This document shows, piece by piece, positions 55,401 to 58,400 of a stretch of DNA of 64,000 nt. Source of the stretch: Hydra vulgaris (lineage: Eukaryota; Cnidaria; Hydrozoa; Anthoathecata; Hydridae); the NCBI RefSeq assembly GCF_038396675.1, contig NC_088927.1, positions 34,413,001 through 34,477,000 on the forward strand. The letters run 5' to 3'. The notes beneath the pieces are model-generated. The model did not search any database and was not told the origin of the DNA. It was given only the letters and a program-made list of their open reading frames with translations. The translations under genes and the position numbers were made by a program. Position 1 is the stretch's first letter; each line of letters opens with the position of its first letter.

Positions 55401-58400
55401 CTATATATATATATATATATATATATATATATATATATATATATATATATATATATATATATATATATATATATATATATATATATATATATATATATAT
55501 ATATATATATATATATATATATATATATATATATATATATATATATATACATATATATATATATATATATATATATATATATATATATATATATATATAT
55601 ATATATATATATATATATATATATATATATATATATATATATATATATATATATATATATATATATATTAGGGTATATCATACTTTTAAAATTTTTGATT
55701 TTCAATTTGGCGGATAATTTTTATGGTGCCACTTTATGTAAATATTAACTTCCAAAAAAAAATTGAAAAAAATTATTGCAGTTTTCGAAAAGATAAAATA
55801 GTTCATTTATGCATAAATGCAAGGAGGGTCAAAATTTTTAAATTATTGAAATATGAAACTATTTAGATTTTTTTTATATATATTACCATATGCTGTGAAA
55901 CGTGAATAATTTTTTTTTCTAAAAAAAATTAATTTTTGCGGGAAAAAGGGCCTTTTAAGATTGAAAAAAAAAGTTAAAATATAATAAATGATAAATTTTT
56001 TAAATAATTAGGACTTTCATTGGAATTTTTTTAATAGAAATTTTCAGACTTTATTTTGTTTGAATGACGTCTTTTTAGTTCAGACAAAATGACTATAATT
56101 GAAAGTGTATGGTAATAATGATGTTGTTATTTTACTTGGGGGTTGGAGTGTGAGTTGTTTCTGACTATTACGACTTTGTAATTATGTCTTTATGAGTTCA
56201 TTGTGGTTTAAAAACTATATAAAAAGAGTTCGTTTTTTTATTTGCAATCATGTAAATGGAAATTCTAATAAAGATATCAAATTAACTATGACTACTTCAA
56301 AAAACACAAGACTCTCTATGGAAACAAAGTTATCAACTTATTTAGGTGGAAGTAAGGATCTTATTCTGTCAGAAGTGCCAACTTTAAGAGATATTTTGAG
56401 AAAAGGTCTGCTTATCCAAGAAGCTTTACTCCGAGAAGAAGATGTTAACAGGTAATAATCAAGAAACTCAAAATTTATGAAATAAATTATACATTTAGCA
56501 TTATATATAATATTTTTGTTTTTAGAAGGAATATTTCAGTGAGAGACCTTTCTCGACTACTAGTTGATATTGTTCTTCAGCAGTGGATGAAAGCAAATGC
56601 TCTTTTTAAACCTCCAGTGGTTAATTGAAAGAAAACTTTAATGAAGAAAATTGAATTTTCCTGGAACAAGATCAAAAATATAGCACATGGGAAAGCTTCT
56701 AAGACACACGTTTCTTCTTGGGAATCAAAACTGGAACAATTGCTAGATGTAACATGTTGCAAGTGTGAAATCATGTTATGTAACGAGTGAAACTTTGTGG
56801 AATCGCTGCCCAGGCCTTTTGGATTTGTTCAAACAGTTGATCCTTATTACGAACACCTTCACGATTAATTCTGCGGTTGACGATCTCCAACAGGTTCTCG
56901 ATAAGGATCTTATTCTGTCAGAAGTGCCAACTTTAAGAGATATTTTGAGAAAAGGTCTGCTTATCCAAGAAGCTTTACTCCGAGAAGAAGATGTTAACAG
57001 GTAATAATCAAGAAACTCAAAATTTATGAAATAAATTATACATTTAGCATTATATATAATATTTTTGTTTTTAGAAGGAATATTTCAGTGAGAGACCTTT
57101 CTCGACTACTAGTTGATATTGTAAAGACTAACAGTTGGACAATGGTACCGTGGAGATAAATATTATGGCCAAATGAGTTGAAGTTTAACTTGAGAGGTTA
57201 AGATAGTAAACAAAATTATGTAACGAGTTCTGTTTGAAAAATTATTCTTGCGTTGATCAAGTACATATTAAGTGTACTTGTGTGAAAGAGAAAAAAATTC
57301 CCAAGGTTGAACTTCCATGGCTTATGCCCAAAGGAAAAAAAAGGATCTATTTCAAAATACCAGATGGGTTTCAATGACATTAAAGAGACCGCCAGACAGA
57401 TTTCGCGAGAGGAGAAAAAAATGAAAAGGAAGTCTGGAGTAGAGAAAAAATTAGAAATGGAAAAAAAAATAAGGTAGAAAATGACAACGTTGTTGAATGT
57501 TTAATTGAGGATAATTCAGATTTAAAAAAAGAAAAGATTTCAGAAGATCCGCTTCAAAACAAGATTTGGAAAAAAAACAATATGTCAATTAGTCACATTG
57601 CAGAAGTTTCAATAAGATATGATATTTCACCAGCAGCAACATCAGCTATTGTTACATCCTTTCTTCTAGACCTTATTGAAGCGAAGTATTTGACGCCTGA
57701 TATGTCTTATTTAGCTGTTGATCCTATGAAAGTAAGAAGAGCAAGGGAAGCAATAATGGAGAGAGTAATAATGTCTGAAGAAAAGCTAACTGACGAAGAG
57801 CCTGTTAGAGGTTTGTTTATTGATAGAAGGAAGGACTCAACTTTAGTTTTGGAACAGAATACTCGAACAAATAAATTTCACATGAGAACTATAAAAGAAG
57901 AACATATAACTGTGACCTGTGAGCCTGATGGAAGATACCTTACTCATTACACACCACCTAAAGCTATACCACCAAGCAAACCAGCCAAAGAAACCGTATT
58001 TGCTCTTTACAATTGGATGGTTCCAAGGGCAATCCATGAGTCCTTAGAGGTCGTAGGTGGAGATTCTACAAACTCCATGCCAGGTTCAGGAAAAGATGGA
58101 GGTTTGCTGTCAAATCTGGAACAATTAGTAGGGAGAAAATTATTCTGGTCTATTTGTATGCTCCATTGTAATGAATTACCATTGAGGCACATAATTGTTG
58201 AACTGGATGGCCCAACTAATTGAAAGGATGGTTTTACTAGCCCTATTTGAAAAGCTTTATCTTAAGTCAATAACATAAAAAGACTTGAAACGTTTGAACC
58301 TATAGAAAAGCTGGAACCTTTAATTGAAATTCCTGAAAAAGTTCTCAAAACAATGTCAACAGATGCAGCTCTCTGTTATTAATTGATACAATGTTTGTCC

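What the first reader, a model, noticed from the sequence alone, without database searches (positions are those of the whole stretch)
56776..57227. Scar of multi-template break repair: three local sequences copied into one break
The 440-bp insertion is made of 116 bp from Tc1 copy 2 (53758-53873), 219 bp from the same host element just upstream (56355-56573) and 94 bp from the decayed Tc1 (53023-53116). All are in direct orientation with no mismatches, and it ends in a 12-bp duplication of TTATGTAACGAG. Junctions have 0-2 bp of microhomology (TA between first and second, none between second and third). This is what polymerase-theta-type end joining or serial replication template switching would leave, and it must be recent. 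The donor order 3 kb, 0.4 kb, 4 kb away implies repeated re-invasion of one neighbourhood. The first donor sequence also exists in the Tc1 at 42-43 kb, but the third does not.
Basis: partly seen in the sequence, partly recalled or inferred. Interest (0 to 1): 0.85.

Follow-up and report, generated by a model that had tools for sequence, protein, structure and literature searches.

The report
Patchwork DNA-break repair scar
A 440-base insertion in a mobile element is stitched together from three exact copies of sequences lying within about 4 kb, the mark of a recent broken-DNA repair that kept switching templates; the kind of scar is already known from other animals, but this is a very clean example.

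Summary
Between two copies of TTATGTAACGAG (56776-56787, 57216-57227) lie three patches of 116, 221 and 94 bp, each identical to a site up to 4.1 kb upstream, all direct. Six of six related element copies that I aligned show the uninterrupted site. Each internal junction was found once in the 911.5-Mb genome. Patch 3 was found intact only at its source and in the scar. Patch 2 carries the neighbouring copy's bases at 3 of 3 diagnostic sites. Patch 1 has no unique donor: another Tc1 copy is identical.

Best explanation: one break repaired by serial DNA template switching (SDSA or MMBIR-like). Polymerase theta is disfavoured, not excluded: long patches, donors away from the break ends, no error in 429 bp. 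Junction overlaps (1, 2, 0, 1 bp) are what chance gives. RNA templating is disfavoured by a predicted unspliced intron and mixed gene sense.

This is a three-donor member of a known class (repair-mediated duplications). Assembly error is unlikely but was not tested with reads.

The parts
56776..56787 (+). left copy of the 12-bp duplication TTATGTAACGAG
   Evidence: one such stretch at the empty site of paralogs
56788..56903 (+). patch d1, 116 bp, identical to Tc1 copy 2 (53758-53873) and to Tc1 copy 1 (43281-43396, reverse strand)
56902..57122 (+). patch d2, 221 bp, identical to 56353-56573 of the same host element, including a 74-bp intron predicted by eye
   Evidence: 3 of 3 local-private bases shared
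57123..57216 (+). patch d3, 94 bp, identical to decayed Tc1 at 53023-53116
   Evidence: 100% at two places, all other listed matches to the surrounding 471-bp query at 76% or less
57216..57227 (+). right copy of the 12-bp duplication
53023..53116 (+). donor of d3 (decayed Tc1)
53758..53873 (+). possible donor of d1 (inside Tc1 copy 2; antisense to its 348-residue stop-free frame)
56353..56573 (+). donor of d2
55670..59428 (+). host element interrupted by the scar: a DNA transposon with long inverted terminal repeats (TIRs), right TIR cut short in this copy
   Evidence: left edge read by eye

Best explanation
A double-strand break, or a collapsed replication fork, inside an old transposon copy was repaired by DNA synthesis. 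The growing end copied d1, d2 and d3 (in this order if growing from the left) from neighbouring DNA, changing template with little or no base pairing, and was then joined to the other side. The 12-bp flanking duplication came either from filling in staggered ends or from re-entry 12 bp behind the exit point. Shown: exact patches, local templates for d2 and d3, empty site in paralogs, duplication, internal junctions seen once. Inferred: one event, order of copying, polymerase, cause of the break. Synthesis-dependent strand annealing (SDSA) and MMBIR/FoSTeS-type template switching leave the same product and are not separated here.
For: Three exact adjacent patches with non-collinear donors at offsets up to 4.1 kb. 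Uninterrupted site in 6 of 6 aligned paralogs. Each internal junction found once genome-wide at up to 3 mismatches, 0 for the reversed control pattern. d3 at 100% only at source and scar, 29 of 29 candidates scored, others at 76% or less. d2 shares 3 of 3 local-private bases and differs from the six aligned paralogs at 6-9 sites. A predicted intron is retained in d2 (read). 0 of 429 bases differ, 95% upper bound 0.7%.
Against: Junction homology is no more than chance, so it does not support microhomology-driven switching. d1 has no unique donor. Several successive insertions cannot be excluded from sequence. The general search scored 40 of 181 candidates, so its counts are lower bounds. No reads or second haplotype were available.
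Confidence: 0.76

Rival explanations
1. Polymerase-theta end joining: repeated abortive priming from the break ends with templated filler.
For: Templated insertion, template switching, 0-2 bp overlap at the junctions. In PMC5068794 2-3% of inserts come from more than 1 kb away or other chromosomes, and copying in simple deletions has fewer than 1 error in 3,000 bp.
Against: Templated inserts there average about 10 bp, mostly from within 10-20 bp of the break, with about 1 error in 30 bp; at that rate no error in 429 bp has P = 5e-7, but at an assumed rate of 0.0024 P = 0.36, so error-freeness alone is weak. Here there is no deletion.
Confidence: 0.1
2. RNA-templated insertion: a retrotransposon reverse transcriptase joined several local transcripts, giving a target-site duplication.
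For: 12-bp flanking duplication, a feature of class 1 TSIPs (PMC5110952, passages); chimeric LINE-1 insertions are known (PMC13174262, start of abstract in listing). The base pair before d2's donor is AG.
Against: No added poly(A). Predicted intron unspliced in d2. d1 antisense to the Tc1 frame while d2 and, less surely, d3 read as sense. No GT after d1's or d2's donor and no AG before d3's. Templates are local; in PMC2671141 0 of 39 proximal duplications had poly(A/T) tails against 17 of 29 others.
Confidence: 0.04
3. Assembly or read artefact joining neighbouring repeats.
For: Repeat-rich neighbourhood with (AT)n arrays at 53266-53335 and 55403-55668. No reads were available.
Against: The scar lies 1.1 kb from the nearest array and is built of short, precise patches with a flanking duplication at an otherwise intact site, which assemblers do not normally create (inference).
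Confidence: 0.05
4. Two or three separate repair events at the same place, nested or adjacent.
For: Cannot be excluded from the sequence.
Against: The patches abut without filler and share one outer duplication; one event is simpler.
Confidence: 0.05

Closest known systems
Repair-mediated duplications by capture of proximal DNA, Pace et al. 2009 (PMC2671141; abstract and sections 6, 7, 12 read)
   Same: Insertion within a transposon copy, donor within 5 kb, tens to hundreds of bp (proximal maximum 619), target-site duplications of 4-21 nt in some, chimeras of two donors in 20 of 1,136.
   Different: Three donors instead of one or two; in 15 of their 20 chimeras the second donor was on another chromosome; their microhomologies are 2-9 nt, here the outer junctions have 1 bp; probably not a vertebrate genome; d1 would fail their rule of a single other location.
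MMBIR-type templated insertions, MMB-TIs (PMC8421209; passages read)
   Same: One insertion copied from several templates; up to five templates reported for germline events.
   Different: That search looked for inverted copies of templates within 100 bp; here all patches are direct and the donors 0.2-3.8 kb from the break, with less junction homology.
Patch-mediated staggered-break repair in rice, Vaughn and Bennetzen 2014 (not held; seen only as a title in reference lists)
   Same: Flanking duplication explained by staggered breaks (title and recall).
   Different: Not read; no detailed comparison made.
Polymerase-theta templated inserts (PMC5068794; sections 10 and 12 and passages read)
   Same: Templated filler, template switching, about 1 bp priming.
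   Different: Mostly much shorter, at the break edge, error-rich and with a deletion.

Membership tests
Repair-mediated duplication (proximal) | insert of at least 50 bp in a repeat copy, absent from the pre-insertion site | tested here: met
   440 bp; absent in 6 of 6 aligned paralogs; orthologous allele not available
Repair-mediated duplication (proximal) | donor within 5 kb and more than 50 bp away | tested here: met
   d2 and d3; d1 not uniquely assignable
Repair-mediated duplication (proximal) | microhomology of 2-9 nt between donor and acceptor flanks, or filler, deletion or 4-21 nt duplication | tested here: met
   12-bp duplication met; outer microhomology only 1 bp, so that item alone is not met
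Repair-mediated duplication (proximal) | no poly(A/T) tail | tested here: met
   terminal AAAA belongs to the d3 donor, nothing added
Polymerase-theta templated insertion | short inserts primed near the break ends | tested here: not met
   94-221 bp patches from 0.2-3.8 kb away
Polymerase-theta templated insertion | error-rich copying | tested here: inconclusive
   0 of 429; P from 5e-7 to 0.36 or more depending on the assumed rate
Polymerase-theta templated insertion | dependence on POLQ | not testable with these tools
   needs mutants
MMBIR/FoSTeS template switching | microhomology at switches (2-12 bp at 80% of MMB-TI junctions, PMC8421209) | tested here: not met
   1, 2, 0, 1 bp; P = 0.41 for a total of at least 4
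MMBIR/FoSTeS template switching | several templates in one insertion | tested here: met
   three
LINE-mediated templated insertion (class 1 TSIP, PMC5110952) | duplication of recipient sequence of at least 5 bp | tested here: met
   12 bp
LINE-mediated templated insertion (class 1 TSIP, PMC5110952) | poly(A) tract | tested here: not met
   nothing added after d3
LINE-mediated templated insertion (class 1 TSIP, PMC5110952) | cryptic polyadenylation signal and TTTT/A target preference | not tested
   not searched

The most novel reading that the evidence does not exclude
In this genome, breaks are healed by several successive long, accurate, nearly homology-free template jumps within a few kb, perhaps set off by the long (AT)n arrays lying between the donors. 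Such patchwork scars would then be a recurring, datable record of fork collapse, probably in a long-lived cnidarian.
Probability: 0.1. Interest if true: 0.5.

Novelty: new member of a known kind. Interest (0 to 1): 0.3.

Why it matters
It is an unusually readable record of one natural repair event: the patches are exact, two donors are well fixed, and the pre-break sequence can be read from paralogs. It gives a model for a genome-wide search. If the genome is Hydra vulgaris, as I infer, haplotype-resolved assemblies of two strains have been published (PMC12220107, passages read) in which the allele could be looked up.

Tried and rejected
A pre-existing composite repeat: rejected, because each internal junction has one place in the genome and d3 has two at 100%. 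Spliced or circular RNA template: rejected on donor edges, predicted intron and sense; the AG before d2's donor is the one edge that would fit it. Microhomology as positive evidence: rejected, it is at chance level. Polymerase theta: disfavoured, not excluded.

Survey for other multi-patch scars. (98% identity, donors within 10 kb): the window gave 2 pairs, both this scar; one 200-kb block of another chromosome (190 kb of letters) gave 2 pairs, which by their coordinates are tandem duplications. (donors within 20 kb): the window gave 3 pairs at 98% (not printed) and 14 at 92%, of which 12 were printed, 11 in a minisatellite-like cluster at 20.2-22 kb and 1 in the scar; the block gave 2 at 98% and 3 at 92%, all three adjacent repeats; the four 8-kb paralog stretches gave none at 98% and 0, 0, 0, 1 at 92%, the one being a tandem duplication. 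The sample is too small to give a rate. The larger survey that I planned could not be done.

The number of exact d1 copies in the genome was not obtained: the pattern search did not complete. In one search, which scored 40 of 181 candidates, five places match at 99% over 119 bases, the two window copies among them; only the two window copies were checked as exact over the 116 bp. Pfam on three open stretches of the host element gave no match above a curated cut-off, so its transposase is unnamed.

Full report
Setting. The window is part of an unnamed 911.5-Mb genome in 15 contigs, C8:34413001-34477000. Its size and number of contigs fit Hydra vulgaris strain AEP: PMC12220107 gives 334 Mb as 36.6% of the AEP genome, about 913 Mb (passages); the chromosome number of 15 is recalled. 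This is my inference; no call names the organism.

Anatomy. Maximal exact matches show three abutting patches between two copies of TTATGTAACGAG: d1 56788-56903 (116 bp) = 53758-53873, d2 56902-57122 (221 bp) = 56353-56573, d3 57123-57216 (94 bp) = 53023-53116, all direct and without mismatch (BLAST agrees). Shared bases at the four junctions are T, TA, none and T. The insertion is 440 bp net with a 12-bp duplication (13 if the shared T is counted). Offsets from donor to patch are 3.0, 0.55 and 4.1 kb.

Empty site. Joining the two flanks and comparing them with six related copies (L003-L008) gave one uninterrupted alignment of 436-437 query bases, 93.8-95.2% identical, in 6 of 6. At the place of the duplication L006 and L008 have exactly TTATGTAACGAG; L003, L004, L005 and L007 have variants of it, L007 with a 1-bp gap. 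Other places listed were not aligned. Relative to these paralogs nothing was deleted; there is only insertion and a short duplication. The orthologous allele was not available.

Donors. In a search with the 471 bp around d3's donor, all 29 of 29 candidates were scored: d3 is at 100% at source and scar only; every other match is at 76% or less. In the search with the scar and its flanks (40 of 181 candidates scored, so a lower bound) d2 has one other exact place, the neighbouring donor, and the best of the rest is 97%. At the three sites where the local donor differs from all six aligned paralogs the scar carries the local base at 3 of 3, while the paralogs differ from the scar at 6-9 sites. 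d1 is ambiguous: Tc1 copy 1 in the window (43281-43396, reverse) is exact too, and three places on other contigs match at 99% over 119 bases. The two internal junctions, as 30-base patterns with up to 3 mismatches, each occur once, with no match to the reversed control.

Age. No difference in 429 bases gives a 95% upper bound of 0.7% divergence, while the host copy is 5-6% from the six aligned relatives. The event is recent relative to the element; no years can be given. Later gene conversion between scar and donors could also keep them alike; it was not tested.

Mechanism. DNA templates are favoured. d2 carries a predicted intron (GT...AG, 56452-56525, read by eye, not tested with RNA). d1 is antisense to a 348-residue stop-free Tc1 frame, while d2 reads in the sense of its element; for d3 the sense rests on one short stretch that resembles a Tc1 motif which I recall. 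Of the donor edges, only the one before d2 ends in AG; none of the others needed for splicing is GT or AG. No tail was added. Direct orientation of all three has a chance of 1 in 8 and is weak evidence. Junction overlaps sum to 4, P = 0.41 for at least that many by chance in this base composition. What is left is serial copying of long patches without error. SDSA with several invasions, or MMBIR/FoSTeS-type switching, fits, though the lack of excess microhomology does not favour the latter. Polymerase theta fits poorly with most published scars in C. elegans: average templated insert about 10 bp, about 85% primed within 10 bp, about 1 error in 30 bp; but 2-3% of inserts there come from more than 1 kb away or other chromosomes, and simple deletions show fewer than 1 error in 3,000 bp (PMC5068794, sections 10 and 12 read). 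The 12-bp duplication fits filled-in staggered ends; work on induced breaks links tandem duplications to protruding ends (PMC5730883 and PMC8355091, passages). Re-entry of the growing end 12 bp back would give the same result. The (AT)n arrays between the donors are possible fork-stalling sites; that is a suggestion, not tested.

Comparison. Pace et al. 2009 describe 824 human proximal duplications in interrupted transposons, mean 162 bp and maximum 619 bp, with target-site duplications in 6 of 39 inspected proximal cases, and 20 chimeras of two donors among 1,136 (PMC2671141); in 15 of the 20 the second donor was on another chromosome. Germline insertions from up to five templates are reported in humans (PMC8421209, passages). 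The present scar is thus a three-donor member of a known kind. Five searches of the paper library dealt with such scars (20 of 49, 20 of 29, 17 of 17, 10 of 847 and 10 of 401 papers listed). Only included the word cnidarian, and the listed titles name no cnidarian example; this does not show that none is in print.

Frequency. At 98% identity and donors within 10 kb the detector finds this scar alone in the window, and in a 200-kb block of another chromosome (190 kb of letters) two pairs that are tandem duplications by their coordinates. Looser settings add a minisatellite-like cluster and further tandem repeats (12 of 14 window pairs printed). The sample cannot tell whether such scars are common in this genome.

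Noticed in passing
window 55670-59428; L038 2040-5612; L039 2569-5856: The host element is a DNA transposon with inverted terminal repeats of about 430 bp beginning AGGGTA. In L038 and L039 it is flanked by 10-bp direct repeats (AATGTTTAAT, ACTATATAGT), which suggests a Mutator-like type (recalled criterion); no Pfam match reached its cut-off. The right end in the window is truncated.
   Followed up: partly
window 53428-55407 and 41747-43502: Two Tc1-type copies, 99.7% identical over 1,756 bp. The one at 53.4 kb (edges read by eye) has a 348-residue stop-free frame and sits between two (AT)n arrays.
   Followed up: partly
window 20203-21969: Minisatellite-like cluster with direct and inverted copies, spacing apparently about 39 bp.
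   Followed up: no
window 58615-58833: Open frame of 73 aa inside the host element with weak similarity to HEAT repeats, below the curated cut-off.
   Followed up: no
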